Source of the DNA: an uncultured Faecalibacterium sp.
Lineage (GTDB): Bacteria > Bacillota > Clostridia > Oscillospirales > Ruminococcaceae
Assembly (NCBI GenBank): GCA_934518555.1
Contig: CAKSXW010000039.1
Span: 1 to 18,720, forward strand
Length of the DNA stretch: 18,720 nt
Reading direction: 5' to 3'
This document shows positions 7,019 to 18,720 of this stretch, in pieces (position 1 is the first letter of the stretch; every line of letters begins with the position of its first letter). The notes beneath the pieces were generated by a model. It was not told the DNA's origin, ran no database searches, and saw only the letters and a list, made by a program, of their open reading frames with translations. Position numbers and translations under genes: made by a program.

Positions 7019-7029
7019 ATGCATGGGAC

Positions 7030-7343
7030 GATTTGGAATGGTCTCCGCTTCGCTCTGACCATTTTTAGCGGAAACTATTTTATATTCAGTTGCGTTTGTC
7101 GCAGCCTGCGGGCCGCTCCAAACGCATTTTCACCGGGAGGAGTCGTAACGGAAAGCGGCAGCAACCACGGTAGACATTCCTAGCCGTTGGGACCTGCAAC
7201 AACGACGACCGCTGCCTGCGGCAGAAACAGGGAGGAGTTGTTGGGGCAGCGGCCAGCAGGATGCACGGCCCCTCCAAGGGCCGTTGCAGACGCTGGGTGC
7301 CGCAACCCGTGACACTAAAAAAGAGCCCACCGGGCTCTTTTTT
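7030..7343 (+). repeat. Structured repeat element, copy 1 (candidate non-coding RNA)
   Basis: The copy opens with GATTTGGAAT. AATGGTC (7037-7043) pairs with GACCATT (7057-7063) around a 13-base loop, and the first six loop bases, TCCGCT (7044-7049), can pair with AGCGGA (7067-7072), forming a pseudoknot. After an A/T-rich linker comes a hairpin of about 15-16 positions per arm (7091-7106 with 7111-7126) capped by C(TGCG)G, with an A-C mismatch and a small internal loop. The conserved TTTTCAC box and a GG-rich tail follow, ending in GGCAGC near 7160. The remaining sequence is unlike copies 2 and 3 but has its own hairpins (for example CCGCTGCC 7209-7216 with GGCAGCGG 7245-7252) and ends in the terminator at 7317-7343. 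Transcription is inferred. Confidence 0.6.
7317..7343. terminator. Bidirectional intrinsic terminator
   Basis: Twelve perfect pairs, AAAAAAGAGCCC (7317-7328) with GGGCTCTTTTTT (7332-7343), close a 3-base loop. On the plus strand it would end repeat copy 1, or readthrough from the operon ending at 6969. Confidence 0.8.
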
Positions 7344-7367
7344 GCCGCCTGCGGGTGGCCGTGTTCC

Positions 7368-7386
7368 TTCGATTCCTCGTACGGGT
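7368..7386 (+). repeat. Inverted partial copy of the tRNA-Glu 3' end
   Basis: TTCGATTCCTCGTACGGGT on the plus strand matches the T-arm and acceptor 3' strand of the minus-strand tRNA-Glu, apart from one inserted T. It lies on the other side of the tRNA terminator, so the two form a long inverted repeat around it. Confidence 0.7.
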
Positions 7387-7392
7387 TGCATG

Positions 7393-7424
7393 AAAAAATC
7401 CCTGATCCTAAGATCAGGGATTTT
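7393..7424 (-). terminator. Intrinsic terminator of the tRNA-Met/tRNA-Glu unit
   Basis: A 13-bp stem, AAAATCCCTGATC (7395-7407) with GATCAGGGATTTT (7412-7424), has a 4-base loop. Read on the minus strand it is followed by a run of six T. It begins only six bases after the tRNA-Glu 3' end. Confidence 0.85.
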
Positions 7425-7429
7425 ATTCA

Positions 7430-7501
7430 TGACCCGTACGGGAATCGAACCCATGTTACAGCCGTGAAAGGGCCGTGTCTTAACCGCTTGACCAACGGGC
7501 C
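7430..7501 (-). tRNA. tRNA-Glu (anticodon TTC)
   Basis: On the minus strand the acceptor GGCCCGT pairs with ACGGGTC (one G-T). The anticodon stem CGGCC/GGCTG closes the loop CTTTCAC, giving anticodon TTC, which reads Glu codons. The T-arm is GGGTTCGATTCCC, and the discriminator base is A. The CCA tail is not encoded. It is the second tRNA of a two-tRNA transcript and ends just before its terminator. Confidence 0.95.
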
Positions 7502-7508
7502 TGACAAA

Positions 7509-7589
7509 TACAGAGCTTCGCTAAAACCTCCGACTTTCATCGTCCACTACTGCGAACGACCGTCCCCCTTATCTTAGCGAAACTCTGTA
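7509..7589 (-). repeat. Inverted-repeat spacer between the two tRNAs
   Basis: TACAGAGCTTCGCTAA (7509-7524) and TTAGCGAAACTCTGTA (7574-7589) are complementary at 15 of 16 positions and enclose 49 bases. In the pre-tRNA transcript this would form a long hairpin filling nearly all of the space between tRNA-Met and tRNA-Glu. It may help processing or be a small inserted element. Confidence 0.7.
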
Positions 7590-7592
7590 ACG

Positions 7593-7669
7593 TGGTAGCG
7601 GTAACTGGATTTGAACCGGTGACACTTCGGGTATGAACCGAATGCTCTAGCCAACTGAGCTATACCGCC
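7593..7669 (-). tRNA. tRNA-Met (anticodon CAT, elongator type)
   Basis: On the minus strand the acceptor GGCGGTA pairs with TACCGCT (a G-T pair at the end), the anticodon loop TTCATAC gives CAT, and a CCA tail is encoded. The GGCGG acceptor and the CGGTTCATACCCG arm match elongator tRNA-Met rather than initiator tRNA. A lysidine-modified tRNA-Ile(CAT) is less likely but cannot be excluded by anticodon alone. Confidence 0.93.
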
Positions 7670-7703
7670 ACATATTTAGTTTGCACTTGAACGGTGCTTT
7701 ATT

Positions 7704-7732
7704 ATTATATCCAGAGATGCCCCTTTTGTCAA
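7704..7732 (-). promoter_or_regulatory. Consensus sigma-70 promoter of the tRNA unit
   Basis: On the minus strand TTGACA (7732-7727) and TATAAT (7709-7704) are both perfect and separated by 17 bases. It lies 35 bases upstream of mature tRNA-Met, as expected for a strong stable-RNA promoter. Confidence 0.9.
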
Positions 7733-7804
7733 CACATATTTTCAAAAAATTTTGCAGTTTTTTGTTTTTCCCGGGGCGGCGGTGTCCAGTGCCCCCTGCC
7801 CGGC

Positions 7805-7839
7805 AAAAGGGCCGCTGCACACATCCTGTGCAGCGGCCC
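7805..7839 (-). terminator. Intrinsic terminator of the lipoprotein gene
   Basis: Thirteen perfect pairs, GGGCCGCTGCACA (7809-7821) with TGTGCAGCGGCCC (7827-7839), have a 5-base loop and are followed on the minus strand by four T. It lies about 50 bases after the stop codon and shares its core with the hairpin at 6981-7018. Confidence 0.7.
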
Positions 7840-7891
7840 GGTGTCTGGGTCTTTTTATCCTTTGGGGGGTCCAGGGGTCAGTGGCTTGCCC

Positions 7892-8440
7892 TTACTGTCC
7901 GGGGTAGGGGCAGTAGGTGCAGTACACTGCATACAGCTTGCCGTCAATAAAGGCTGCATCCAGGCCGATATGGGTATCCTCTTCCGCACCCAGCACTCCC
8001 ATGCCGTATTCGCTGCATTCGTAGAGCCGCTGCTTCATCTTCAGGGTCGAGGGCGGCAGCTCCGTATCCAGGTACAAGCGTGTTCCGCTTGTGCCGTGGC
8101 CCACGCTTCTGCTCAAATGATAGCCCCGAAGCCCACTGGCCCCCTTGAACCAGGTTATAAAGTTGTTCCACATGGGTGAATCTTTTTCCATCACAAGCTC
8201 CGGGGTACCTGCCTCCAGGAAGAGGCCCATAAAATACTGTTCCCATTCCGTGGACTCCTGCAGCTTTTCCAGCGGTGCCCAGCCTTTTTCTTTCCGCAGC
8301 TGGTTGACCACCTGGAATACTGCCTCCCGGGCCTGGGCGTCGGAGGTGATGGGAACATCGGTCTCGTCGTTACAGGCGGTCAGTATCAGCAGCAGCAGAC
8401 CTGCCAGCAGCACCAGAGCCCAGCGTAACCGTTTTTTCAT
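7892..8440 (-). CDS. Small secreted lipoprotein of unknown function (possibly CAP-like)
   Basis: A 182-residue protein. The start MKKRLRW at 8440 was chosen because GAGAGG lies nine bases upstream; an in-frame ATG nine bases earlier would add only MIP. The N-terminus is a lipoprotein signal: basic residues, a Leu-rich core and the lipobox LTAC, with the lipidated Cys near residue 22. The mature part has no motif I recognise with certainty. The stretch AVFQVVNQLRKEKGWAPLEKL, followed later by YGMGVLGAEEDTHIGLDAAFIDGKLYAVYCTY, loosely recalls the start and end of CAP/SCP-fold proteins, but the catalytic-type His residues are not clear. It should be anchored to the outer face of the membrane. 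It is transcribed alone, with its own terminator. Confidence 0.75.
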   Translation of the reverse strand: MKKRLRWALVLLAGLLLLILTACNDETDVPITSDAQAREAVFQVVNQLRKEKGWAPLEKLQESTEWEQYFMGLFLEAGTPELVMEKDSPMWNNFITWFKGASGLRGYHLSRSVGHGTSGTRLYLDTELPPSTLKMKQRLYECSEYGMGVLGAEEDTHIGLDAAFIDGKLYAVYCTYCPYPGQ

Positions 8441-8491
8441 AGGGATCATCCTCTCTTTCCTAAAGTTCCAGGGGGAGTTCTTACCACTTCC

Positions 8492-8521
8492 AGCATACCA
8501 GATGCGCCCCCTTGGCCGCAA
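8492..8521 (-). promoter_or_regulatory. Possible promoter of the lipoprotein gene
   Basis: On the minus strand TTGCGG (8521-8516) and TGG-TATGCT (-10 at 8497-8492) are 18 bases apart, about 50 bases upstream of the start. The -35 match is weak. The rest of 8522-8619 shows nothing recognisable. Confidence 0.35.
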
Positions 8522-8619
8522 GGGCTTTGGAGGGTCCGGGGCACTTCAGGGCAGAAAAGTTTTTCTCCCCTTTTCATGCCCTTTGCACAAATTGGGCGGA
8601 AACTGCCGGGCCCAGACGC

Positions 8620-8656
8620 AAAAAGCACCGTTTCCTTGCGAAAACGGTGCTTTTTT
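8620..8656. terminator. Bidirectional terminator downstream of serS
   Basis: AAAAAGCACCGTTT (8620-8633) pairs perfectly with AAACGGTGCTTTTT (8642-8655) around an 8-base loop. On the minus strand it lies about 45 bases after the serS stop codon. Confidence 0.85.
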
Positions 8657-8701
8657 CAACCTTTTTCTGCCCCGGTGTGGAAAAGCCGGTGCAAAGAGGC
8701 C

Positions 8702-10033
8702 TTAGTTCTTTTTGTTGGTGGGCACCATGACCTTCAGGCCGCCCATGTAGGGCTGCAGCACTTCGGGGATGGTGACGCTGCCGTCAGCCTGCAGGTGGTT
8801 CTCCAGGAAGGCAATGAGCATCCGGGGAGGAGCCACGCAGGTGTTGTTCAGGGTGTGGGCCAGGTAGGTCTTGCCGTCCTTGCCCTTGATGCGGATGTGC
8901 AGGCGGCGAGCCTGAGCATCCCCCAGGTTGGAGCAGGAGCAGACCTCAAAGTACTTCTGCTGACGGGGGCTCCAGGCCTCGATGTCACAGCTCTTGACCT
9001 TCAGGTCAGCCAGGTCACCGGAGCAGCAGTTCAGCTGACGCACCGGGATCTCCATGCTGCGGAACAGCTCCACAGACATCTGCCACAGCTTCTCGTACCA
9101 GTCTGCGCTCTCCTCGGGGCGGCAGACCACGATCATCTCCTGCTTCTCGAACTGGTGGATGCGGTAGATGCCGCGCTCCTCGATGCCGTGAGCGCCCTTC
9201 TCCTTGCGGAAGCAGGGGCTGTAAGAGGTCAGGGTCAGGGGCAGGGTGTCCTCGTCCAGCGTCTGGTCGATGAAGCGGCCGATCATGGTGTGCTCGCTGG
9301 TGCCGATCAGGTACAGGTCCTCGCCCTCGATCTTGTACATCATGGCGTCCATCTCCGGGAAGGACATGACGCCCTGCACCACGTTGCCGTGCATCATAAA
9401 GGGAGGGATCACATAGGTAAAGCCCTTGTTGATCATAAAGTCGCGGGCGTAGGCCAGCACAGCCTCGTGCAGGCGAGCAATGTTGCCCAGCAGGTAGTAG
9501 AAGCCGTTGCCGGCCACACGGCCTGCAGCGTCCATGTCGATGCCGTCAAAGCTCTCCATGATCTCGGTGTGGTACGGGATGGGGAAATCCGGCACCACGG
9601 GCTCGCCAAAACGCTGAGCCTCCACGTTGCAGCTGTCATCGGGGCCGATGGGCACGCTGGGGTCGATCATCTGGGGGATGGAGTACATGATCTCCTGGAT
9701 CCGGGCAGACAGTGCCTCCTCCTCCTTCTCCAGCTCAGCCATCTTGTCGGCGTCGGCCTTCACGGCGGCGTTGTTGGCGTCGATCTGAGCCTGCAGCTGG
9801 GCCTTCTGGGCCTCGTCGGTGCACTTCTTCAGCTGGCCGAACAGAGGGCCGTTGGCCTTGCTGAGCTTGTTACGGGCAGCCTTCAGGTTCTCCACTTCCT
9901 TCAGGGCGGCACGGTACTGGGCATCCTTTTCGATGACCTCGTCCACCAGGGGGAGCTTGGCGTCCTGGAACTTTTTCTTGATGTTTTCCTTGACAGCGTC
10001 CGGGTTCTCACGGACAAATTTGATATCAAGCAT
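8702..10033 (-). CDS. serS: Seryl-tRNA synthetase
   Basis: A 443-residue class II synthetase that charges tRNA-Ser (and tRNA-Sec) with serine. The start MLDIKFVREN at 10033 has AAGGAG upstream and is the usual SerRS N-terminus. Residues about 1-110 form the coiled-coil arm that grips the tRNA long variable arm (Lys/Glu/Ala-rich). The core has the serine-binding TSEH stretch, motif 2 (FRKEKGAHGIEERGIYRIHQFEK) and motif 3 (APPRMLIAFLENH), then PEVLQPYMGG. It is the variant known from many Clostridia, with TSE and NNTCVAPPR where B. subtilis has TAE and a Gly-rich AVGRT. A 101-base gap separates it from parB, with a small hairpin (GGCGGT/ACCGCC) that may end parB. No T-box is visible. Confidence 0.95.
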   Translation of the reverse strand: MLDIKFVRENPDAVKENIKKKFQDAKLPLVDEVIEKDAQYRAALKEVENLKAARNKLSKANGPLFGQLKKCTDEAQKAQLQAQIDANNAAVKADADKMAELEKEEEALSARIQEIMYSIPQMIDPSVPIGPDDSCNVEAQRFGEPVVPDFPIPYHTEIMESFDGIDMDAAGRVAGNGFYYLLGNIARLHEAVLAYARDFMINKGFTYVIPPFMMHGNVVQGVMSFPEMDAMMYKIEGEDLYLIGTSEHTMIGRFIDQTLDEDTLPLTLTSYSPCFRKEKGAHGIEERGIYRIHQFEKQEMIVVCRPEESADWYEKLWQMSVELFRSMEIPVRQLNCCSGDLADLKVKSCDIEAWSPRQQKYFEVCSCSNLGDAQARRLHIRIKGKDGKTYLAHTLNNTCVAPPRMLIAFLENHLQADGSVTIPEVLQPYMGGLKVMVPTNKKN

Positions 10034-10097
10034 GATTGACACTCCTTGCTCTATTTGCTCTATATGGTTCTCAGCAGGGCCACAGGGCCTACCGCTG

Positions 10098-10116
10098 CCG
10101 CTCAAAGGCGGTGTTA
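10098..10116 (-). terminator. Possible weak terminator between parB and serS
   Basis: On the minus strand AAGGCGGT-AAC-ACCGCCTT forms an 8-bp stem with a 3-base loop, about 20 bases after the parB stop. Only a short T-run follows, so readthrough into serS is plausible. Confidence 0.4.
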
Positions 10117-10134
10117 CCGCCTTGGATCGCTTGG

Positions 10135-11004
10135 TTAATCTTCCAGCTGGTACTGCCCCAGCAGGTTGGCAAAGCTCCGCAGCTGCTCGTCGGAGTAAAA
10201 ATGCACCGTCAGCTTGCCTTTGCCCCCGTGGTAGGCCACATGGACCTCGCTGCCCAGCACCTGCTTGAGGCTTTCTTCCACCTCCACCGGCAGGGTGCCC
10301 CGGCTCTGGGGCTCCTGGGGTGCCCGGTCCGGCTTTGCCAGCTTTTTGCACAAGGCCTCGGTCTGGCGCACGTTCAGCTGGTTGTCGGCCACCAGCCGGG
10401 CGGCCTGCTCCTGCAGCTCCGGGGTGGGCAGGCCCAGGATCACCTTGGCGTGGCCCATCTCCAAAAATCCGCTTTTCAGCAGCTCCAGCACCGATTCCGG
10501 CAGGTTCAGCAGCCGCAGGCTGTTGGCCAGGGCACTGCGGCTTTTGCCCAGCTTCCGGGCGGCCTGCTCCTGGGTCAGCTCACAGCGGTCCATCAGCTCC
10601 CGGATGCCGGCGGCTTCTTCCACCGGGTCCAGGTCCTCACGCTGAAGATTTTCCACCAACGCCAGCTCCATGGCCTGCTCGTCGGTAACGTCCTTGACCA
10701 CCACCGGCACCTCGGTGAGGCCTGCCATGCGGCAGGCACGCCAGCGGCGTTCTCCGGCTACGATGCTGTAGCCGCCCAGTCCCTGGGGCCGCACCGCAAT
10801 GGGCTGCAGCAAGCCGTGCTCCGCAATGCTGGCAGCCAGCTCCCCTAAGGCCTCCTCGTCAAAGGTCTTACGGGGCTGGTCCGGGTCCGGCTCGATCTCC
10901 CGCAGGGGCAAAGTCTGCACCCCGGTATCGGCCCCCAGGCTGGGTGCGGCGTCCTCAAACAGACTTTCCAGCCCCCGGCCCAGTCCTCCTTTTCCTTTTG
11001 CCAT
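10135..11004 (-). CDS. parB: Chromosome-partitioning protein ParB (Spo0J)
   Basis: A 289-residue ParB. The N-terminus MAKGKGGLGRGLESLF is the ParA-interaction segment typical of chromosomal ParB. The CTP-binding/ParB-N region carries GERRWRA (84-90) and ENLQREDL (about 118-125), and a helix-turn-helix follows (LTQEQAARKLGKSRSALANSLRLL, about 143-166). A C-terminal dimerisation domain (about 235-289) ends the protein. ParB loads on parS near the origin, slides as a CTP clamp, recruits SMC and stimulates ParA ATPase. It lies 24 bases downstream of parA in the same direction, the universal parAB order. Noc, encoded upstream, is its paralogue. Confidence 0.96.
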   Translation of the reverse strand: MAKGKGGLGRGLESLFEDAAPSLGADTGVQTLPLREIEPDPDQPRKTFDEEALGELAASIAEHGLLQPIAVRPQGLGGYSIVAGERRWRACRMAGLTEVPVVVKDVTDEQAMELALVENLQREDLDPVEEAAGIRELMDRCELTQEQAARKLGKSRSALANSLRLLNLPESVLELLKSGFLEMGHAKVILGLPTPELQEQAARLVADNQLNVRQTEALCKKLAKPDRAPQEPQSRGTLPVEVEESLKQVLGSEVHVAYHGGKGKLTVHFYSDEQLRSFANLLGQYQLED

Positions 11005-11028
11005 TCTTCTCTCTGTTCCCCCCGTATG

Positions 11029-11868
11029 TTAGTCTTCCAGTGCGCTCTTGGCCGGAACCGACTCCGGCACACTTTTGCCCCGGCTCCGGGCCTTTTTAGG
11101 CGGATGGGGGCGGTTGTTTTTTACAAATTCGATGGCCAGATCCATGTAGGCTTCGCTGCCCTTGCCCTTGGGCTCGTAAAAATTGATGGGCTGCCCGTAG
11201 CTGGGGGCCTCCGAAATGCGAATCGAACGGGGGATCGTGGTTTTATACACCTTGGAGCCAAAGTACTTCTGCACCTGCTCCACCACCTGCACCGTCAGAT
11301 TGTACCGCAGGGAGAACATGGTGAACACCACGCCCTCGATATCCAGGTAGGGGTTGTACTTTTTGCGGATGGTCTTGAGGGTGCTGATAAGCTCCGACAA
11401 GCCCTCCAGGGCGTAATACTCGCACTGCACCGGGATCAGCACGCTGTCACAGGCACTGAGGCCGTTGAGGGTCAGCAGGTCCAGGCTGGGCGGACAGTCG
11501 ATAAAGATATAGTCGTAGTCCTGCTGCACCGTGGCCAGGGCCTTCCGCAGGCGGCTTTCCCGGCCCGGCAGGTCGATCATCTCCAGGCTGGCTCCTGCCA
11601 GACGGGTGTTGGAGCCGATGACATCGGTGCGGAACTCGGTCTTGCGGATGGCCTGGGCGGCAGTGGCCCGGCCAATGAGCACCTCATAGGTGCCGCACTC
11701 CACGCTGCGCTTGGGGATGCCGTAGCCGGTGGTGGTGTTGCCCTGGGGGTCCAGGTCCACGATGAGCACTTTTTTGCCCAAAGCCGACACGCAGGAGGAC
11801 AGGTTGACGGCGGTGGTAGTCTTGCCTACGCCGCCCTTCTGGTTTGCGATTGCTACAATTTTTGCCAC
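11029..11868 (-). CDS. parA: Chromosome-partitioning ATPase ParA (Soj)
   Basis: A 279-residue ParA-type ATPase. The deviant Walker A motif KGGVGKTT (11-18) carries the signature Lys, Walker A' DLDPQGN lies at about 38-44, and FIDCPPSLD is the Walker B region. Chromosomal ParA/Soj binds DNA non-specifically as an ATP dimer and, through ParB, separates origins and controls DnaA. The C-terminus is extended with a basic stretch (KNNRPHPPKKARSRGKS) compared with the usual length of about 255, and may add DNA contacts. The 246-base upstream gap holds a promoter (11964-11969) and two parS-like sites, one only 31 bases before the start codon, so feedback by ParB or Noc on its own operon is plausible. 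Confidence 0.96.
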   Translation of the reverse strand: MAKIVAIANQKGGVGKTTTAVNLSSCVSALGKKVLIVDLDPQGNTTTGYGIPKRSVECGTYEVLIGRATAAQAIRKTEFRTDVIGSNTRLAGASLEMIDLPGRESRLRKALATVQQDYDYIFIDCPPSLDLLTLNGLSACDSVLIPVQCEYYALEGLSELISTLKTIRKKYNPYLDIEGVVFTMFSLRYNLTVQVVEQVQKYFGSKVYKTTIPRSIRISEAPSYGQPINFYEPKGKGSEAYMDLAIEFVKNNRPHPPKKARSRGKSVPESVPAKSALED

Positions 11869-11898
11869 AGGTGTTTCTTCCTTCCGGGAAAAATGGGG

Positions 11899-11914
11899 TG
11901 TTCCACATGGAACA
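11899..11914. promoter_or_regulatory. parS-like site in the parA leader
   Basis: TGTTCCACATGGAACA differs from the perfect palindrome at 13733-13748 by one base in the centre (A for G). It sits between the parA promoter and its start codon. Confidence 0.75.
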
Positions 11915-11963
11915 TTCGCAGTTGTGCCTGCTCGTTTCCCGTCGCACAGACATCTCAGCCCCT

Positions 11964-11969
11964 AGTATA
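11964..11969 (-). promoter_or_regulatory. Extended -10 promoter of parA-parB
   Basis: On the minus strand TGTGCTATACTAG holds a TGC-extended TATACT. TTCAAA 17 bases upstream matches four of six -35 consensus positions. The string is shared with the promoters at 1096-1101 and 3320-3325. Confidence 0.6.
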
Positions 11970-12098
11970 GCACACTCCGGTGGGTTTTTGAACCGTTTAC
12001 CGGCTTTTTCGGCGGTTTTTTGACATTTTGCGGTGCAAAAGTTCCGGTTTTGCCAGGCTGATGGGCAGTTTTGAAGCAAATTTGCCCTCCCCGGCCCC

Positions 12099-12114
12099 TG
12101 TTCCACATGGAACA
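12099..12114. promoter_or_regulatory. parS-like site at the noc stop codon
   Basis: TGTTCCACATGGAACA is identical to the site at 11899-11914 and directly abuts the noc stop codon (12115-12117). Confidence 0.75.
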
Positions 12115-12912
12115 TCAGCCCTTTTCGGCGGCAGCAGTGGGGATCCGGACGGTGTACTCAATGTAGCCGTCCTTCTCCTCCCGGTGGGCGGTGGCAGGCA
12201 CCCCATTGTCGGTCATGAGCCGGATGGCGTGGTCGATGGTGTTCACAAAGATCCGCACGTCCTTTACCATGGACACCCGGCGGCGGCCCTTGCCGCTTTG
12301 GTTCAGCAGCTGCTGGATGTACAGGTCCGTCTGCCGGGCGTTGAGCCGCCCCTTGGCAATGTGGATCAGGGCCTCGCTGCGGCGGTTTTCCGGCAGACGC
12401 AGCACCGCCCGGGCGTGACGCTCCGTCAGGCCGTTGTCCCGGACGAACTGCCGCTGGTCCCCTGTCAGCTGCAGCAGCCGCAGCTTGTTGGCCAGGGTGG
12501 GCTGGGCCATGCCCAGCCGCTGGGCAGCCTGGGCCTGGGTGCAGTCCCACAGCACCAGCAGGTCCCGCAGGCCCTGGGCCTGCTCAAAGGGGTCCAGGTC
12601 CTGCCGCTGCAAATTTTCCAGCAGACCCAGGGCCGCAGTTTCCGCATCTGCATAGCTGTACACGATGGCCGGGATGGTGGTCATCTTGGCCAGCTTGCAG
12701 GCCCGGAGCCGCCGCTCCCCTGCCACCAGCTGGTAGCCCTCCGAGGTCCTGCGGACCGTCACCGGCTGCAGCAGCCCGTTTTGCCGGATGCTCTGGGCCA
12801 GCCCTGCCAGCTCCTGCTCCTCAAAGGTCTTGCGGGCCTGAAAGGGCGAGGGCTGGATCTGGTCGATGGGCAATACACAGAGCTTTCCGCCGGGCTTTTT
12901 CCGTTCAAACAT
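12115..12912 (-). CDS. noc: ParB-family nucleoid occlusion protein Noc
   Basis: A 265-residue ParB paralogue. It has the ParB-N signature GERRLRA (65-71), ENLQRQDL (about 99-106) and a helix-turn-helix (CTQAQAAQRLGMAQPTLANKLRLL, about 124-147). Its place between rsmG and parA is the B. subtilis noc position, so Noc is preferred over a second ParB. Noc binds its own DNA sites and keeps the division septum away from the nucleoid. The start MFERKKPGGKL at 12912 was chosen because of AGGAGG 11 bases upstream; an ATG at 13014 would add 34 residues running through an inverted repeat. With this start the N-terminal membrane-binding amphipathic helix of B. subtilis Noc is not obvious. The rsmG terminator upstream and a TTTTCCAC inverted repeat suggest its own regulated promoter. 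Confidence 0.88.
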   Translation of the reverse strand: MFERKKPGGKLCVLPIDQIQPSPFQARKTFEEQELAGLAQSIRQNGLLQPVTVRRTSEGYQLVAGERRLRACKLAKMTTIPAIVYSYADAETAALGLLENLQRQDLDPFEQAQGLRDLLVLWDCTQAQAAQRLGMAQPTLANKLRLLQLTGDQRQFVRDNGLTERHARAVLRLPENRRSEALIHIAKGRLNARQTDLYIQQLLNQSGKGRRRVSMVKDVRIFVNTIDHAIRLMTDNGVPATAHREEKDGYIEYTVRIPTAAAEKG

Positions 12913-12950
12913 TACAAAGGACGCCTCCTCTTTCCAGATTTCCGGTGGAT

Positions 12951-12982
12951 TTTTCCACTCTTTTCCGGGGAAATGTGGAAAA
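12951..12982. promoter_or_regulatory. Inverted repeat TTTTCCAC-N16-GTGGAAAA upstream of noc
   Basis: Two perfect 8-base half-sites (12951-12958 and 12975-12982) are separated by 16 bases. The second arm with its next base reads TTTTCCACA on the minus strand, which fits a relaxed DnaA box. The spacer contains TTTTCCGGGGAAAT (12961-12974), close to the known Noc binding site ATTTCCCGGGAAAT with two mismatches. An identical arm-and-spacer layout lies upstream of mnmE. Confidence 0.55.
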
Positions 12983-13013
12983 CTCACCCCAAAGCCAGTG
13001 TACCACACAAACA

Positions 13014-13048
13014 AAGACCCTGCCAGAAGTTTCGTTCGGCAGGGTCTT
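13014..13048 (-). terminator. Intrinsic terminator of rsmG
   Basis: An 11-bp perfect stem, AAGACCCTGCC (13014-13024) with GGCAGGGTCTT (13038-13048), has a 13-base loop, and T-rich sequence follows on the minus strand. It lies 22 bases after the rsmG stop codon. Confidence 0.8.
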
Positions 13049-13070
13049 GCATCTTCTTATGAAAATGGGA

Positions 13071-13778
13071 TCATTTCAGGGGGCTTTTTGCGATCTTACC
13101 GCCATTTCTGGGGTAGGCTGTCGGGGTTTGCGAAATCTTTTTGCAGAGGATCAGGGTCCGGGTGTCGCCGCCGGGCAGGTGCAGCTGCCGGGTCTCCCGG
13201 TACTCGCCGCCCAGCTTTTTGATGGCACCCCGGGCGGCCGCCAGCTCCTCCTCCCCGGATGCTCCCTTCATGGCCAAAAAGTTGCCCCCCACCTTTACCA
13301 GGGGCAGGCAGTATTCTGCCAGCATGGGCAGGGCCGCCACCGCCCGGGCAGAGGCCAGGTCGAACTGCTCACGCCAGGCCTTGCGAGCGGCTTCCTCTGC
13401 ACGCTCCTTGGCAAACTCCACCCCGGTAAGGCCCAGCTCCCCACAGGCGTACTTCAAAAACTCCACACGCTTGCCGGTGGGCTCCATGAGGGTCAGCTCC
13501 AGCTCCGGCTTGAAGATCTTGGTGACGATGCCCGGGAAGCCTGCCCCGGCCCCCACGTCCACCATGCGGCCTGCCACTTCCGGCTGGCTGGCAAAAAGCA
13601 GGCTGTCCAAAAAGTGCTTGTCCTCAATGCCCTCCGGGTCGGTAATGGCTGTCAGGTTCACCTTTTGGTTGTAGTCCACCAAAATCTGTGCAAAGGCATC
13701 CAGCTGGTCCAGCTGGGTGCCGGTAAGGGAGATGTTCCACGTGGAACACTTGGCCTCCAGCCGCTGTTTGTCGATCAT
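13071..13778 (-). CDS. rsmG: 16S rRNA (guanine-N7) methyltransferase RsmG (GidB)
   Basis: A 235-residue methyltransferase of normal length. It methylates N7 of G527 (E. coli numbering) in 16S rRNA using S-adenosylmethionine, and its loss gives low-level streptomycin resistance. The SAM-binding motif is VDVGAGAGFPGI (73-84). NLTAITDPEGIEDKHFLDSL (41-60) is the family signature, and ASARAVAALPMLAEY follows in the core. The start codon at 13778 has AAAGGA upstream, 28 bases after mnmG, so the two are probably co-transcribed. Codons about 11-16 contain a perfect parS palindrome, so the local protein sequence (CSTWN) is shaped by the ParB site. Its own terminator follows. Confidence 0.96.
   Translation of the reverse strand: MIDKQRLEAKCSTWNISLTGTQLDQLDAFAQILVDYNQKVNLTAITDPEGIEDKHFLDSLLFASQPEVAGRMVDVGAGAGFPGIVTKIFKPELELTLMEPTGKRVEFLKYACGELGLTGVEFAKERAEEAARKAWREQFDLASARAVAALPMLAEYCLPLVKVGGNFLAMKGASGEEELAAARGAIKKLGGEYRETRQLHLPGGDTRTLILCKKISQTPTAYPRNGGKIAKSPLK
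13733..13748. promoter_or_regulatory. parS site (perfect palindrome) within rsmG
   Basis: TGTTCCACGTGGAACA is a perfect 16-base palindrome matching the well-known bacterial parS consensus (TGTTNCACGTGNAACA). It is inside the rsmG coding region and within 4 kb of parAB. Confidence 0.93.
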
Positions 13779-13806
13779 AGCAATGGTTCCTTTCTGTTGT
13801 TCTGGG

Positions 13807-15675
13807 TCAGGCGTGGGCTGCCAGGGCGATGCTCAGCTGGGCCACGTCCGAGGGAGACACCCCGGGAATGCGGCTGGCCTGGCCCAGGTTCTTGGGCCGG
13901 ATACGGGCCAGCTTTTCCCGGGCTTCCAGGGTCAGGCCCGTCAGGGCAGCGTATTCAAAATCTTCCGGGATCAGGGTCTTTTCGTGCCGGGCCACCTCCC
14001 GGATCATCCGGTCCTGCCGGGCAATGTACCCGGCGTACTTGATCTCGGTCTCCAGCCGCTCTGCCAGCATGGGGGTGATGCCCTGGCCCCAGCCAATAAG
14101 CCCGGCCACCAGGTCATAGTGGATCTCCGGCCGCCGCAGCAGCTCCTGGGCAATGCCCCCCTCTGCGGCAGGGGCCAGCCCTGCGGCCTCCATGGCAGCC
14201 TGGAGCTCGGCGGTCCGCAGGTGGCTCTGCTGCAAACGGCGGCGTTCCGCCTCCAGCAGGCTCTGGGTGTGCTGGTACTTGGCCCACCGATCCTCCTGCA
14301 CCAGGCCGTATTCCCGGCCAATGGGGGTCAGCCGGGTGTCGGCGTTGTCCTGCCGCAGGGTCAGGCGGTACTCGCTGCGGCTGGTCATCATGCGGTAGGG
14401 GTCCATGACCCCCTTGGTCACCAGGTCATCCACCAGGGTGCCCAGATAGCTGGTGTGCCGGGGCAGCACCAGCTGTTCCCTGCCCAGGGCGTTGCAGGCG
14501 GCGTTGAGGCCTGCCAACAGGCCCTGAGCGGCGGCCTCCTCGTAGCCGGAGGTGCCGTTGAACTGCCCGGCGCCGTAGAGGCCCCGGACCACCTTGCTTT
14601 CCAGGGTGGCCTCCAGGCTGGTGGGGTCTACGCAGTCGTACTCGATGGCGTAGGCAGGCCGCAGGATCTCAATGTTTTCAAAACCCCGGATGCTGCGGTA
14701 GAAAGCGTTCTGCACATCCTCCGGCAGGCTGCTGGAGGCTCCCTGAAGGTACATCTCCTCGGTGTTCTCTCCGCAGGGCTCCACAAAAATGGGGTGCCGG
14801 TCCTTTCCGGCAAAGCGCACCACCTTGTCCTCAATGGAGGGGCAATACCGGGGGCCCACTCCCTCGATCATGCCGCCGTACAAGGGGCTGCGGTGGATGT
14901 TGTCCAGGATGATCTTGTGGGTGGTGGGGTTGGTGTAGGCGATCCAGCAATCCACCCGGTTGTGCATAGGGGTATCGGTGAGAAAGCTGAAGGGCTGCAG
15001 CTGGTCCTCCGGGTCTCCGGGCTGGCACTCCAGCTGAGAAAAATCAATGCTGCGGCGGTGCACCCGGGCCGGGGTCCCGGTCTTGAACCGGCGCAGGGGC
15101 AGCCCGGCCTCTTTCAGGCTCTGGGTCAAAGCGTTGGAGGCATGCATCCCGTCGGGGCCGGAGGCGTACCAGGCGTCTCCCACAAAAATTTTGCCTCCCA
15201 GGTTGGTGCCGGTGGCCAGCACCACGCACTTGGCAGTGTATTCCCCGTTCAGCTGGGTGATGACCCCCTTTACATGGCCATCCTCCACCTCCAGGGCCAC
15301 CACCTCTGCCTGGTGGATGGCCAGGCCCGGGGTCAGCTCCAAAGCGTGCTTCATGTATTCGTGGTACCGCTTGCGGTCCGTCTGGACCCGAAGGGCGTGG
15401 ACTGCCGGGCCCTTGCCCTTGTTCAGCATCCGGCTTTGCAGATAGGTGGCATCGGCTGCCAGGCCCATGAGGCCCCCAAGAGCGTCAATTTCTCGTACCA
15501 ACGTGCCTTTTGCCGTTCCGCCAATGCTGGGGTTACAGGGCATATTGCCAATGGAATCCAGGCTCATGGTAAACACGGCGGTGCGTGCCCCCAGGGCAGC
15601 GGCGGCGTGGGCTGCCTCGATGCCGGCGTGCCCGGCACCAATGACGATCACATCATAATCTCCTAAGTGGTTCAT
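13807..15675 (-). CDS. mnmG: tRNA uridine 5-carboxymethylaminomethyl modification enzyme MnmG (GidA)
   Basis: A 622-residue FAD enzyme of normal length. With MnmE it builds the (carboxymethyl)aminomethyl group on the wobble uridine (U34) of several tRNAs. The FAD-binding motif is VIGAGHAGIEAAHAAA (11-26), followed by the conserved CNPSIGGTAKGTLVREIDALGG (about 48-69) with its catalytic-region Cys. DGMHASNALTQSLKEAGLPLRRFKTGTPAR (about 174-203) and the second Cys-containing RYCPSIEDK motif (about 277-285) are intact. The C-terminal helical MnmE-contact domain (about 550-622) is present. The start codon is 15675 with AGAGGA somewhat far upstream. The 495-base gap before it holds repeat copy 2. 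It probably forms a unit with rsmG. Confidence 0.97.
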   Translation of the reverse strand: MNHLGDYDVIVIGAGHAGIEAAHAAAALGARTAVFTMSLDSIGNMPCNPSIGGTAKGTLVREIDALGGLMGLAADATYLQSRMLNKGKGPAVHALRVQTDRKRYHEYMKHALELTPGLAIHQAEVVALEVEDGHVKGVITQLNGEYTAKCVVLATGTNLGGKIFVGDAWYASGPDGMHASNALTQSLKEAGLPLRRFKTGTPARVHRRSIDFSQLECQPGDPEDQLQPFSFLTDTPMHNRVDCWIAYTNPTTHKIILDNIHRSPLYGGMIEGVGPRYCPSIEDKVVRFAGKDRHPIFVEPCGENTEEMYLQGASSSLPEDVQNAFYRSIRGFENIEILRPAYAIEYDCVDPTSLEATLESKVVRGLYGAGQFNGTSGYEEAAAQGLLAGLNAACNALGREQLVLPRHTSYLGTLVDDLVTKGVMDPYRMMTSRSEYRLTLRQDNADTRLTPIGREYGLVQEDRWAKYQHTQSLLEAERRRLQQSHLRTAELQAAMEAAGLAPAAEGGIAQELLRRPEIHYDLVAGLIGWGQGITPMLAERLETEIKYAGYIARQDRMIREVARHEKTLIPEDFEYAALTGLTLEAREKLARIRPKNLGQASRIPGVSPSDVAQLSIALAAHA

Positions 15676-15701
15676 ATACTTTCGGGTTTCCTCTAATAAT
15701 T

Positions 15702-16005
15702 GATTTGAAATGCCCTCCGTTTTACTCTGGGCATTTTCAGCGGAAGAATTATTTTAAATTTCGGGTTACAGGAAAGTCTGCGGACTTTCCTGTAACCCAT
15801 TTTCACGGGTGGGATCGTAACGGGAAACGGCAGCAGCAGCGCTCGCTCCCCCGGGGGGAGCTGTCGCGCAGCGACTGAGGGGCTATCAATCGGCGGAGCC
15901 GGAAAAAACGGTTAAAAGATCTTCACGCCGAACAGGCGTGAATCTTCAGTTTTTTCCGGTGTAGCCCACTGCTTTGAGGTTAAAAGGGGCGTGCAGCCCC
16001 TTTTT
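15702..16005 (+). repeat. Structured repeat element, copy 2 (candidate non-coding RNA)
   Basis: The copy begins GATTTGAAAT. AATGCCC (15709-15715) pairs with GGGCATT (15729-15735) around a 13-base loop whose first six bases, TCCGTT, can pair with AGCGGA (15739-15744). After AATTATTTTAAAT comes a perfect 16-bp hairpin (15763-15778 with 15783-15798) capped by C(TGCG)G, then TTTTCAC and a GG-rich tail to GGCAGC. A second module follows: a CTCCCC hairpin, a GTCGC/GCGAC hairpin, and a long stem (15899-15909 with 15949-15959) enclosing an inner stem with loop GAACA. The copy ends at a terminator-like hairpin (15982-16005). It is on the strand opposite to mnmG and mnmE and fills most of their intergenic gap. 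Confidence 0.65.
15982..16005. terminator. Terminator hairpin at the end of repeat copy 2
   Basis: AAAAGGGGC (15982-15990) pairs perfectly with GCCCCTTTT (15996-16004) around GTGCA, and one further T follows on the plus strand. It can act in both directions. Confidence 0.7.
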
Positions 16006-16086
16006 CGTGGCTCCAGCGCATCGAAATCGCTGTGACCTTGCTGTGCTGAACGCACATCATTTGCTGCACAAACCGGTCTGCGACTT

Positions 16087-16107
16087 GAAAGCCCCACTGG
16101 GGCTTTC
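16087..16107. terminator. Hairpin downstream of mnmE
   Basis: GAAAGCCCC (16087-16095) and GGGGCTTTC (16099-16107) pair perfectly around a 3-base loop, 64 bases after the mnmE stop on the minus strand. A second stem, TCTCTTTTG/CAAAAGAGA (16137-16158), lies closer to the stop. Neither has a long T-run. Confidence 0.5.
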
Positions 16108-16170
16108 ATGCCTTGCAGGCACCGCCGCACTTTTCTTCTCTTTTGGTGTCAAAAGAGAACATTCCCGCCC

Positions 16171-17541
16171 TTATTTCCCCACGCAGAACCGCTCAAACAC
16201 CTGCTCGATGACGGCCTCGGAGGCGTTTTCCCCCGTCAGGTCCCACAGAGCAGCCAGAGCATCGTCTACGCAGACGGAAACAGCGTCCAGGCCAAAACCT
16301 CCGGCGGCGGCCTCCAGGGCCCCCTTTACGGCGTCCCGGGCCCGGAGGGCGGCGGAAAGCTGCCGCTGGCCCGAAAGGCTGGCGGCGTGGGGGTCCACCT
16401 GGTTGGTGCCCAGCAGCCGGGCCACCGCAGCGGCGATGACCTTGCGGCTCCCCTCCTCCCGGCAGCACACCGGCAGCACCAGGGCAAAGTCCTGGGCGAT
16501 GAGCTCCGGGTCGAACCGGGCAGGCTTGTCCTCCTTGTTGATGAGGGCAATGGCCGGCCGGCCTCCGCAGCGCTGGGCCAGCTCCAGGTCCTCCCGGGTG
16601 GGAGGCTCTGAGCCGTCGAACACTGCCAGCACCAGGCCAGCTTCCTCCAGCTTTTTCCAGCTGCGGCGGATGCCCTCGGCCTCAATGGCGTCCTGGGTCT
16701 CCCGGAGACCGGCGGTGTCAAAAAGGTTCAGCCGGATATCTCCCAGCTGCACCGCCTGCTCCACCACGTCCCGGGTGGTGCCGGCCACCGGGGTGACGAT
16801 GGCCCGGTCAAAGCCTGCCAGCAGGTTCAGCAGGGTGGATTTTCCAGCGTTGGGGCGGCCCAGGATCACGCAGTCCACCCCTTCTCGCAGCACGGTGTCG
16901 GCGTTGTAGCTGCGGATCAGCCCCTCCAGGGCCTCCTGAACGGAGCCCAGCACCTGGCCCAGGTGGGCGGCATCCAGCTCCGGCACATCCTCCTCAGGAA
17001 AGTCCACCCAGGCCGTCAGGTGGGCCTGCAGGGCAGTGAGGGCCTCCCTTTGCTGGCCGATCTTCCGGGCCAGGGCACCCCCCAGGGCGGCGTTGGCCAG
17101 GGCAGCTCCCTGGCGGCCGTCGGCAGAGATCAGGTCCATGACCGCCTCTGCCTGGGTCAACCCCAGCTTGCCGTTGAGGAAGGCCCGACGGGTGTACTCC
17201 CCTGCCCCGGCAGGTTCTGCCCCGGCAGCCAGACAGGCCTCCACCAGCCGCCGGGCCACCGCATTGCCCCCGTGGCAGGAAAGCTCCACCACGTCCTCCC
17301 CGGTGTAGCTGTGGGGTGCCCGGAAAAACAGGGCCACCCCCTGGTCAAAGGCCTCGTCCCCCTCCACAAAGCTGCCAAACAGGGCAGTGTAGCCCTTGGC
17401 CTGGGCCACAGACTTGGCGGCGTTGGCAGGGCGGAACACCTGTTCTGCCACCTGATAGCTCCGGGGGCCCGACAGGCGCACCACGGCAATGCCTCCGGCC
17501 CCGGGGGCAGTGGCGATGGCGGCAATGGTCGATCCCTGCAT
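16171..17541 (-). CDS. mnmE: tRNA modification GTPase MnmE (TrmE)
   Basis: A 456-residue protein of normal length, partner of MnmG in U34 modification and also a K+-stimulated GTPase. The N-terminal formyl-folate-binding domain starts MQGSTIAAIATAPGAGGIAVVRLSG, with SYTGEDVVELSCHGG at about 78-92. The G domain has GRPNAGKST (228-236), TTRD (255-258), DTAG (275-278) and NKED (335-338). The C-terminus ends RFCVGK, the conserved CxGK that holds the catalytic Cys (453). The start at 17541 has AAAGGA six bases upstream; extending to an ATG at 17679 would add a non-homologous tail. It is flanked on both sides by direct copies of the structured repeat, so it is physically separated from mnmG and jag, which are usually adjacent. 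Confidence 0.97.
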   Translation of the reverse strand: MQGSTIAAIATAPGAGGIAVVRLSGPRSYQVAEQVFRPANAAKSVAQAKGYTALFGSFVEGDEAFDQGVALFFRAPHSYTGEDVVELSCHGGNAVARRLVEACLAAGAEPAGAGEYTRRAFLNGKLGLTQAEAVMDLISADGRQGAALANAALGGALARKIGQQREALTALQAHLTAWVDFPEEDVPELDAAHLGQVLGSVQEALEGLIRSYNADTVLREGVDCVILGRPNAGKSTLLNLLAGFDRAIVTPVAGTTRDVVEQAVQLGDIRLNLFDTAGLRETQDAIEAEGIRRSWKKLEEAGLVLAVFDGSEPPTREDLELAQRCGGRPAIALINKEDKPARFDPELIAQDFALVLPVCCREEGSRKVIAAAVARLLGTNQVDPHAASLSGQRQLSAALRARDAVKGALEAAAGGFGLDAVSVCVDDALAALWDLTGENASEAVIEQVFERFCVGK

Positions 17542-17600
17542 AGTTGTTCCTTTCCGCCCGGGGCCTTTGGCAGCCGGGGCAATGGGGTGTGGGGGCCTCC

Positions 17601-17618
17601 CGGCAGCCAGAGCTGCCG
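17601..17618 (-). other. Leader hairpin of mnmE
   Basis: CGGCAGC and GCTGCCG (7 bp, 4-base loop) form a stem in the mnmE leader. A second GGCTGCC lies about 30 bases downstream on the minus strand and could compete for pairing. Whether it regulates anything is unknown. Confidence 0.35.
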
Positions 17619-17647
17619 AGAGAACGCACTTTCGGATTTTACAGCTT

Positions 17648-17653
17648 ATTTTA
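17648..17653 (-). promoter_or_regulatory. Possible extended -10 promoter of mnmE
   Basis: On the minus strand CGTGGTAAAATAAG holds TGG-TAAAAT about 110 bases before the start codon. No clear -35 box is seen. The TTTTCCAC inverted repeat lies about 40-70 bases upstream of it. Confidence 0.4.
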
Positions 17654-17691
17654 CCACGTTTTTTCGCAAAAAGATACACCCACCGATGGGT

Positions 17692-17723
17692 TTTTCCACA
17701 TCTTCTGAAATCTTGGTGGAAAA
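17692..17723. promoter_or_regulatory. Inverted repeat TTTTCCAC-N16-GTGGAAAA upstream of mnmE
   Basis: The half-sites (17692-17699 and 17716-17723) and the 16-base spacing are identical to those upstream of noc (12951-12982), although the spacer sequences differ. TTTTCCACA here also fits a relaxed DnaA box. Confidence 0.55.
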
Positions 17724-17763
17724 GCTAAGGGTTTTGCATTGTTCTGCCTGCCGGGCAAAGGAG

Positions 17764-18060
17764 GATTTGGAATGTGCTCCGCTGTGCTTTGCACATCTTT
17801 AGCGGAAGAATTATTTTAAATAGAGCCACACCGGGCGGTCTGCGGACCGCCCGGTGTGGCGTTTTCACAGGAGGGGCCGCAAAGGGGAACGGCAGCTGCC
17901 AACCGCTCTCCTGGGGGGAGCTGTCGCACAGCGACTGAGGGGCCGCCAATCGGCGGAGCCGGAAAAAACGGTTAAGAGATCTTCACGCCGAACAGGCGTG
18001 AATCTCCAGTTTTTTCCGGTGGAGCCCACTGCTTTGGGTTTGTCAAGGGCGAGGAGCCCT
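17764..18060 (+). repeat. Structured repeat element, copy 3 (candidate non-coding RNA)
   Basis: The copy begins GATTTGGAAT. ATGTGC (17772-17777) pairs with GCACAT (17791-17796) around a 13-base loop whose first six bases, TCCGCT, can pair with AGCGGA (17801-17806). The linker AATTATTTTAAAT is the same as in copy 2. A perfect 16-bp hairpin (17825-17840 with 17845-17860) again has the C(TGCG)G cap but unrelated stem sequence. The TTTTCAC box and tail follow, then the second module, nearly identical to copy 2, including the long stem at 17959-17969 with 18009-18019. A short hairpin AGGGC-GAGGA-GCCCT follows at the same relative place as the copy 2 terminator, but without a T-run. It lies between jag and mnmE, antisense to both. 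Confidence 0.65.
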
Positions 18061-18085
18061 GGACCCGTTGTGGGGTGGGTGGAGT

Positions 18086-18131
18086 CCAGAGGAAGGGAGG
18101 GGGGAGTCGGAACACCCCTCCCTACCTCTGG
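18086..18131. repeat. 17-bp G-rich hairpin between repeat copy 3 and jag
   Basis: The arms at 18086-18102 and 18115-18131 are complementary at 16 of 17 positions around a 12-base loop. It may be a further structured part of copy 3, but copies 1 and 2 have no counterpart. The sequence from 18132 to 18208 shows nothing else recognisable. Confidence 0.6.
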
Positions 18132-18208
18132 CCCAGCGGAGCGTCCCTGCCCGGTGGAAGGCAGCAGAGGCCTCACATTGCCAGGGGCAGCTGCTCCCCC
18201 CACAAACA

Positions 18209-18247
18209 ACAAAGCCGGGCGGCCCATTACGGACTGCCCGGCTTTGT
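18209..18247. terminator. Terminator downstream of jag/khpB
   Basis: ACAAAGCCGGGC (18209-18220) pairs perfectly with GCCCGGCTTTGT (18236-18247) around a 15-base loop. On the minus strand it follows the jag stop by about 20 bases and leads into T-rich sequence. It may also end a plus-strand transcript of repeat copy 3. Confidence 0.75.
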
Positions 18248-18268
18248 GTTAAAAGTTAAAAGATCCTG

Positions 18269-18720
18269 TTACAGCTCGATCTTGCCAAAGCTGAAATCGG
18301 CAAAATCATCCACACGCTCGGTGCGCTTGGGTGCCACCGGTGCGGCACTCTCGGCGTCCCGGGGTGCGTAGGTGCGCTCGGGGACACTGGAGGGACGGGG
18401 GCCACGGCCCCCGGCAGGGCGGGAGCCGCCACGGTAGCCGCCGCTGCGGCCGCCTTCCTTGCGGTCCCCATGGTCATTGCGGCCCCGATAACCGCCGTTG
18501 CGGTTGCCGCCGGGCCGACGGCCATTGCGGTTGCCGCCCCGGGGGCGGCGCTCGCCGTAGGTGTTCTCGGTCTGGGCGTCAGGGGCGGTGGAGTAGATCA
18601 CCACACGGCGGTCCCGGCCTTCGCCCTTGCTCTCGCTGCGGACCCCCTCCATCTTGCTGATGGCAGAGTGGATGATGCGGCGCTCGTAGGGGTTCATGGG
18701 CTCCATGGCAAAGCTGCGGC
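18269..18720 (-). CDS. khpB: RNA-binding protein Jag/KhpB, C-terminal part (R3H domain with Arg/Gly-rich tail)
   Basis: The frame enters from the right edge; about 150 C-terminal residues are visible. They start inside the R3H domain (RSFAMEPMNPYERRIIHSAI), the single-strand nucleic-acid-binding motif that normally ends Jag/SpoIIIJ-associated proteins. The expected R3H end follows (SESKGEGRDRRVVIYS). After it, about 100 extra residues form a low-complexity tail rich in Arg, Gly, Asn and Pro (RRPRGGNRNGRRPGGNRNG and similar), ending in an acidic/aromatic DDFADFSFGKIEL. Jag binds RNA with its partner KhpA and affects cell elongation and division in other Firmicutes. The position next to mnmE fits the rnpA-yidC-jag-mnmE order. 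The Jag-N and KH domains would lie beyond the window. Confidence 0.9.
   Translation of the reverse strand, partial: RSFAMEPMNPYERRIIHSAISKMEGVRSESKGEGRDRRVVIYSTAPDAQTENTYGERRPRGGNRNGRRPGGNRNGGYRGRNDHGDRKEGGRSGGYRGGSRPAGGRGPRPSSVPERTYAPRDAESAAPVAPKRTERVDDFADFSFGKIEL

What the first reader, a model, noticed from the sequence alone, without database searches (positions are those of the whole stretch)
7030..18060. Three-copy structured element with covarying stems: candidate unrecognised RNA of about 300 nt
Copies at 7030, 15702 and 17764 (all plus strand) share one architecture: GATTTGRAAT; a 6-7 bp stem around a 13-base loop; a 3-base gap; AGCGGA, which can pair with the first six loop bases (TCCGCT or TCCGTT); an A/T-rich linker; a hairpin of about 16 bp; then TTTTCAC and a GG-rich tail. 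Stem 1 is AATGGTC/GACCATT, AATGCCC/GGGCATT and ATGTGC/GCACAT. The large hairpin stems are unrelated in sequence but keep their length. Changed sequence with kept pairing is the mark of selection on structure. I could not match it to a riboswitch, ribozyme or other RNA class I know.
Basis: partly seen in the sequence, partly recalled or inferred. Interest (0 to 1): 0.88.

Follow-up and report, generated by a model that had tools for sequence, protein, structure and literature searches.

The report
Hairpin-swapping repeat element in Faecalibacterium
The three look-alike pieces are copies of a non-coding repeat that sits about a hundred times between the genes of one group of Faecalibacterium gut bacteria; at the same spot in related species its long hairpin is often a wholly different but still perfectly paired one, which is likely the work of DNA copying and recombination rather than of selection on an RNA, so such matching changes alone would be poor proof of a new RNA.

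Summary
The three copies are real, but the shared unit is about 120-145 nt, not 300. It is a dispersed intergenic repeat with at least 80-117 scored arms in each of 8 of 31 Faecalibacterium genomes. Those 8 and the window form one supported clade of an MnmE tree. Of 122 arms, neighbours under 700 bp apart face inward 14 times and never otherwise, so the full unit is two-armed. Rfam has no match. Covariation is very strong, but the long hairpin shows no excess of G-U steps: 10 G.T against 13 A.C in 1,888 pairs, versus 17 against 4 in host terminator-like hairpins. Stem 1 leans the other way (11 against 4). At several orthologous sites the whole hairpin is replaced between conserved flanks. The loop-AGCGGA pseudoknot gets no covariation support. 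Best reading: a MITE/REPIN-like DNA repeat that spread in one clade, is reshuffled by recombination and kept palindromic by template switching; its arms may act as inward-pointing terminators. No mobilising enzyme was identified; REP-type Y1 transposases are absent from two of the 8 rich genomes.

The parts
7028..7147 (+). Arm copy A (single arm): end ACGATTTGGAAT, stem 1 7038-7043/7057-7062, AGCGGA 7067-7072, hairpin 7091-7106/7111-7126 (imperfect) with TGCG loop, TTTTCAC 7127-7133
   Evidence: model R1 109.4 bits; this copy was in the training set
15700..15819 (+). Arm copy B (single arm), about 25 nt upstream of the mnmG start codon and antisense to mnmE-mnmG; stem 1 15710-15715/15729-15734, AGCGGA 15739-15744, hairpin 15763-15778/15783-15798, TTTTCAC 15800-15806
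   Evidence: 129.8 bits; in the training set; orthologous site compared; this hairpin exact once in 31 genomes, at another locus
17762..17881 (+). Arm copy C (single arm) between mnmE and the jag-like gene; stem 1 17772-17777/17791-17796, AGCGGA 17801-17806, perfect 16-bp hairpin 17825-17840/17845-17860, TTTTCAC 17862-17868
   Evidence: (127.5 bits; in the training set)
15841..16043 (.).
   Evidence: (this stretch at many other loci of several genus genomes, up to 95% identity)
17905..18173 (.). Related repeat stretch following copy C
   Evidence: (this stretch at other loci, up to 91% identity over its length)
7165..7316 (.). Another repeat following copy A; a relative of it is inserted inside the stem-1 loop of the orthologous copy-B arm in genome G042
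   Evidence: sequence comparison by eye; limits approximate

Best explanation
It is a dispersed non-coding repeat, two-armed and inverted in its full form, that likely spread as DNA through one Faecalibacterium clade, and whose long hairpin is probably swapped between copies by recombination and kept perfectly paired by template switching during DNA replication. Each arm is an end motif (RRACGATTTRRAAT), a variable 6-bp stem, AGCGGA, an A/T linker, a variable 16-bp hairpin with a nearly fixed C(TGCG)G tip, and TTTTCAC. Shown: copy number, two-arm geometry, clade restriction, intergenic position, different hairpins between conserved flanks at the same site, identical hairpins in otherwise different arms, no G-U excess in the long hairpin. 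Inferred: past transposition, short-tract recombination as the swapping mechanism, template switching as the upkeep. Predicted and untested: read from outside inward, each arm ends transcription, so a two-arm copy between convergent genes would act as a two-way terminator; the window's single arms would be decayed or recombined halves.
For: Copy number: 80-117 scored arms (117 was the scoring cap) in each of 8 of 31 genus genomes, 1-3 in 5, none in 18; 400 kb from two rich genomes, most of it not chosen for arms, gave 14, about the same density. Of 197 genomes drawn from the family 3 match, two of them in the genus. One clade: the 8 rich genomes plus the window are a 100/99-supported group in an MnmE tree of 25 of the 31 genomes and the window; the other lineages there have 0-3 copies. 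Two-arm unit: 14 inward, 0 outward, 0 tandem neighbours under 700 bp among 122 arms. Intergenic: 0 of 122 arms in a called gene; convergent against divergent neighbours 42:10 versus 59:72 for intergenic gaps over 100 bp, p=1.3e-5 (paired and orthologous arms are not independent). Replacement: at one site G004 and G007 are 388/400 identical to the left, 42/43 through stem 1 and AGCGGA, 59/60 just to the right, but 36/57 across linker and hairpin. Six of the 8 orthologous groups hold at least two hairpins. One identical hairpin (26 copies in 7 genomes) sits behind many different first stems. DNA-level upkeep: both-side changes outnumber one-side changes 626 to 7 in the hairpin; G.T 10 against A.C 13 of 1,888 pairs in 118 arms, versus 17 against 4 in 62 host terminator-like hairpins; p=0.015 for the ratio, 5e-8 for the fraction. 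Among 21 GCGTTTG-type hairpins 17 carry a TC/TC mismatch and one each is perfect in the two alternative ways. Terminator: the hairpin is followed by at least four T in 117 of 118 arms; behind a co-directional gene the arm starts within 25 nt of the stop codon in 49 of 68 cases, median 12 nt.
Against: Stem 1 does show more G.T than A.C (11 against 4 of 714 pairs), the direction expected of an RNA. No mobilising enzyme was identified, and no target-site duplication was seen by eye in the 14 of 28 listed candidates that have both ends and both TTTTCAC blocks. The T tract is short (mostly 4-5), and the strict scan does not call the plus-strand hairpins of the window terminators; it calls copy C's hairpin on the minus strand. 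In tandem contexts single arms are not biased to the sense strand (21 sense, 35 antisense, p=0.08). The C(TGCG)G loop (TGCG in 113 of 118) is a UNCG-type RNA tetraloop (recalled class), and its strand-specific constancy would also fit an RNA role. In the pair identity to the right falls to 104/120 and 252/464 further out. Some orthologous sites keep the same hairpin (2 of 8 groups, and two more pairs). The direction of the TC/TC repairs is inferred from one example each.
Confidence: 0.6

Rival explanations
1. A new class of structured non-coding RNA: each arm is transcribed and its fold is under selection.
For: Strong covariation; arm and two-arm sequences fold better than shuffles (z -5.3 and -11.7); nearly fixed UNCG-type loop; G.T above A.C in stem 1; no Rfam family.
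Against: No G-U excess in the long hairpin; whole-hairpin replacement at the same site and identical hairpins in different arms; no conserved upstream promoter block; arms in both orientations to neighbouring genes; about 100 copies per genome. The lone-arm fold drops stem 1 for a different pairing.
Confidence: 0.13
2. REPIN/BIME in the strict sense: inverted REP doublets spread by a REP-associated Y1 transposase (RAYT).
For: High copy, extragenic, inverted doublets, singlets alongside, as described for REPINs (PMC3116915, abstract). Y1 transposase matches are commoner in rich genomes (6 of 8) than in the other genus genomes (5 of 23).
Against: No Y1 match in G007 and G046, which have at least 117 and 95 arms; several of the matches are fragments, and none was shown to be a RAYT; ends are RRACGATTT, not the GTAG or CGTC tags of REPs (PMC3733652, passages); the arm is about 120 nt with two hairpins.
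Confidence: 0.1
3. Domesticated transcription terminators: the arms are kept mainly because they end transcription, and similarity reflects shared use rather than mobility.
For: Hairpin plus T tract; convergent enrichment; tight spacing behind stop codons.
Against: Many arms are antisense to the neighbouring genes, including copies B and C; the T tract is short; stem 1 and AGCGGA are not needed for a terminator; one clade only.
Confidence: 0.12

Closest known systems
REP / BIME / REPIN repeats
   Same: High-copy, extragenic, palindromic, singlets and inverted doublets, mosaic with other repeats
   Different: About 120-nt two-hairpin arm, hypervariable hairpin, no GTAG/CGTC tag, no Y1 transposase in two of 8 rich genomes
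MITEs (non-autonomous inverted-repeat transposons)
   Same: Short, non-coding, long terminal inverted repeats, abundant in one clade
   Different: No target-site duplication seen, no parent transposon found, arms keep structure rather than sequence
Template-switch-maintained hairpins (PMC8794818)
   Same: Perfect stems with instantaneous double changes and repair of mismatches
   Different: There argued for RNA genes; here in a dispersed repeat whose hairpins are also replaced whole
Intrinsic transcription terminators
   Same: Hairpin followed by T's, often near gene 3' ends
   Different: Short T tract, extra conserved 5' module, many copies antisense to genes

Membership tests
REP/BIME/REPIN | High-copy extragenic palindromes, doublets in inverted orientation | tested here: met
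REP/BIME/REPIN | GTAG or CGTC tag at the foot of a 20-40 bp palindrome | tested here: not met
   ends are RRACGATTT; unit about 120 nt
REP/BIME/REPIN | REP-associated Y1 transposase in the genome | tested here: inconclusive
   PF01797 matches in 6 of 8 rich genomes (some fragments, none shown to be a RAYT), none in G007 and G046; 5 of 23 other genus genomes
MITE | Terminal inverted repeats, no coding capacity | tested here: met
   (no called gene inside the 14 inward pairs under 700 bp)
MITE | Target-site duplication | tested here: not met
   by eye on 14 clear two-arm copies; insertions may be too old
MITE | Related autonomous transposon with the same ends | tested here: inconclusive
   inward pairs up to 7 kb in the fetched stretches listed but the genes inside were not identified; whole genomes not scanned for it
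Known structured RNA (Rfam) | Match to a family model | tested here: not met
   nothing relevant up to E=1
Structured RNA under selection | Covariation beyond chance | tested here: met
   (alignment fitted to the model)
Structured RNA under selection | G-U pairs tolerated as intermediates | tested here: not met
   long hairpin; stem 1 leans toward G-U (11 against 4)
H-type pseudoknot (loop with AGCGGA) | Compensated changes in the second helix | tested here: not met
   positions 2, 3 and 5 hardly vary and so say little
Intrinsic terminator | Hairpin followed by T tract | tested here: inconclusive
   mostly 4-5 T's, below the scan's threshold on the plus strand in the window
Intrinsic terminator | Ends transcription | not testable with these tools
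   needs term-seq or a reporter

The most novel reading that the evidence does not exclude
The arm is a new kind of hairpin-exchange element: a folded single-stranded 16-bp hairpin with a fixed TGCG tip is itself the unit that moves, being recombined by shape rather than sequence between fixed AGCGGA and TTTTCAC borders (loosely as integrons recognise folded attC sites, recalled), so that a genome keeps a circulating library of interchangeable hairpins.
Probability: 0.12. Interest if true: 0.85.

Novelty: new variant of a known kind. Interest (0 to 1): 0.52.

Why it matters
Strong covariation is widely taken as proof of a functional RNA. Here about 120 arms show near-textbook covariation, yet the long hairpin lacks the expected G-U steps and is replaced whole at the same site, which points to a DNA process. 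It is a natural test case for separating the two, in a major human gut commensal. No description of the family turned up in our searches of the held library (listings only) or in Rfam, and such copies could inflate automated ncRNA discovery in the genus.

Tried and rejected
Rfam: two tRNAs and chance matches. Own assembly not held. Plasmids: no match. Phage records: five matches to 'Bacteriophage sp.' records; three of the five were fetched (described there as unverified, no annotation). Five of ten ORFs tested have Pfam matches (ABC permease, AcrB, exonuclease, trigger-factor domains twice), which look chromosomal, so these were not taken as phage-borne copies; the other two records were not examined. 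Viral contigs: one pattern match, 12.6 bits with the model. The 17 non-Faecalibacterium pattern hits scored 17 bits or less or were not listed at E<=1. A REP-type helper is not supported but not excluded: 6 of 8 rich genomes have Y1 matches. The first gene caller put genes on the wrong strand and was discarded, which reproduces the window's evident genes. The regex arm list (58 entries) contains about ten reverse-strand linker artefacts by eye; only its flank frequencies are used. One search's list of 28 two-arm candidates holds false or partial ones; 14 were judged clear by eye. One search dropped copies with identical context (143 to 88), so conserved orthologous sites are undercounted; two further conserved pairs are seen (L124/L134, L128/L137). 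The stretches were chosen round known hits, so they are dense in arms. From, 122 of 123 hits were analysed (one on L151 with a long insertion was left out by me), and 118 of those 122 entered the pair counts. Of the 10 G.T and 13 A.C cells, 6 and 6 lie at the outermost pair, where the register is unsure. The terminator-like controls had to have three Watson-Crick pairs at the loop and at most two non-Watson-Crick pairs; the Fisher test on the fraction leaves other mismatches out of their denominator.
Full report
WHAT IS THERE. All three align over about 145 nt. The rest of the claimed 300 nt is other repeat sequence: copies B and C share one second repeat, copy A has a different one. Rfam has no family for it at E up to 1. 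The window holds a jag-like gene, mnmE, mnmG, rsmG and ParA/ParB-like genes, all on the minus strand (names recalled from the protein sequences, not searched). Copies B and C lie in the gaps of this run, antisense to it, copy B starting about 25 nt upstream of the mnmG start codon.

HOW FAR IT GOES. A pattern search hit 25 places in 5 of 41 genomes, with no hit for the reversed control. Named records show the genus is Faecalibacterium. A covariance model finds 80-117 scored arms in each of 8 of 31 genus genomes; at most 117 candidates per genome were scored, so these are lower bounds. Five genomes have 1-3 and eighteen none. Among 197 genomes drawn from the family, the only match outside the genus is one of 41.6 bits (stricter filters there). 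An MnmE tree of 25 of the 31 genomes and the window puts the 8 rich genomes and the window in one clade with 100/99 support; the other lineages have 0-3. Six poor genomes are not in the tree.

ANATOMY. In 41 sources (814 kb, mostly chosen round known hits) the model finds 123 arms at E<=1e-8; 122 were analysed. Arms under 700 bp apart face inward 14 times, outward 0, tandem 0. The two-arm form runs RRACGATTT...TTTTCAC...GTGAAAA...AAATCGTYY; 12 of 14 clear copies are 254-355 bp. Outside conservation begins 2-4 nt before GATTT (A 83%, C 76% at -2 and -1, which includes some artefacts), so no shared promoter precedes the arms. None of 122 arms lies in a called gene. Convergent gaps are favoured over divergent ones (42:10 against 59:72). 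When the gene on the outer side runs toward the arm, the arm starts a median 12 nt after its stop codon (n=68).

COVARIATION, AND WHY IT IS NOT THE USUAL KIND. Over 123 arms, 97.9% of cells are paired, and no shuffle or slid structure comes near (the alignment was fitted to the model and related copies count many times). In the long hairpin 626 cells differ on both sides and 7 on one side. Of 1,888 hairpin pairs in 118 arms (73 distinct hairpins), 10 are G.T or T.G and 13 are A.C or C.A; about half of each sit at the outermost pair. In 62 host terminator-like hairpins from the same DNA the figures are 17 and 4 beside 344 Watson-Crick pairs. RNA selection with stepwise change should leave G-U steps; these palindromes look as if one arm templates the other. 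Against this, stem 1 has 11 G.T and 4 A.C of 714 pairs, so it may be under a different regime. Template switching can both make and repair perfect stems (PMC8794818; passages read). Among 21 GCGTTTG-type hairpins, 17 carry a TC/TC mismatch, one is perfect with the left arm matching the right, and one the other way round; the direction of change is inferred.

REPLACEMENT. Comparing species site by site shows whole hairpins exchanged for others. At one site G004 and G007 match 388/400 to the left, 42/43 through stem 1 and AGCGGA, and 59/60 just to the right, with 36/57 across linker and hairpin between; further right the identity falls (104/120, 252/464). At another site five genomes share the left part and hold four hairpins: two genomes the same one, two that differ by a single T-A to C-G double change, and one unrelated. 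At the mnmG-mnmE site of copy B, five lineages carry an arm with four different hairpins, G047 has only the arm's first bases, and three have a short GATTTGAAT remnant or pre-site. Six of the 8 orthologous groups hold more than one hairpin; two keep one, as do two further pairs, and conserved sites are undercounted. The hairpin GCAATTCTGG... occurs 26 times in 7 genomes (11 in G007, 7 in G024), behind many different first stems and in front of many different tails. The hairpin of copy B occurs exactly once in 31 genomes, at another locus. Short-tract recombination between dispersed copies explains this most simply; shape-driven exchange is not excluded.

OTHER STRUCTURE CLAIMS. The loop-AGCGGA pairing is complementary in the window, but in 106 readable arms position 1 fails in 17, position 4 in 12 and position 6 in 37, with no compensating change. 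Folded alone, copy C prefers a different arrangement in which GATTTGGAAT pairs with the A/T linker; that pairing is also uneven across 83 arms. A two-arm copy folds with its arms paired to each other (z -11.7).

HOW IT LIKELY WORKS. The element spread within one clade, probably by transposition with a helper not identified here. Y1 transposase matches occur in 6 of 8 rich and 5 of 23 other genus genomes, but not in G007 or G046, and no target duplications were seen. Since then copies have decayed to single arms, exchanged hairpins, and been kept palindromic, probably by replication errors that copy one arm from the other. Read inward, each arm has a hairpin followed mostly by 4-5 T's, so it would be expected to end transcription. 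Enrichment between convergent genes and the hint that sense arms are rarer in tandem settings (21:35, p=0.08) fit this, but it is untested, and the strict terminator scan does not call the plus-strand hairpins.

WHAT IS KNOWN. Closest are REP/BIME/REPIN repeats and MITEs; it fails one defining test of each (the GTAG/CGTC tag; a target duplication). Literature searches pairing Faecalibacterium with MITE, REP, palindromic, noncoding RNA motif, terminator, repeat-element and REPIN terms listed no title that describes it (listings only, cut at ten rows).

Noticed in passing
window 15841-16043 and 17905-18173: A second high-copy repeat (GGGGGAGCTGTCGC..., CGGAGCCGGAAAAAACGG...) follows copies B and C and occurs at many other loci in the genus.
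   Followed up: partly
window 7165-7316; G042 copy in L096: A third repeat follows copy A, and a relative is inserted inside the stem-1 loop of the orthologous copy-B arm in G042, leaving the stem halves intact.
   Followed up: no
window 16135-16160: TTCTCTTTTGGTGTCAAAAGAGAA inverted repeat, present beside repeats in several relatives.
   Followed up: no
L234-L236 (MT836242, MT838672, MT838344): Records labelled 'Bacteriophage sp.' contain the repeat near genes with trigger-factor, AcrB-like, exonuclease and ABC permease domains, so they look like bacterial chromosome pieces.
   Followed up: partly
L071 (G008): A poor genome has one two-arm copy whose second arm replaces stem 1 by a CCGCTGACGG/CCGTCAGCGG palindrome, a direct TCCGCT-AGCGGA type hairpin.
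   Followed up: no
L124 5750-9566 versus L134: A 3.8-kb segment is inverted between G024 and G007, with a weak arm match (28.6 bits, L124 5734-5833) beside one breakpoint.
   Followed up: no
window 18189-18309, minus strand: A weak model match (23.4 bits, E 0.0014) at the hairpin behind the jag-like gene; probably an ordinary terminator.
   Followed up: no
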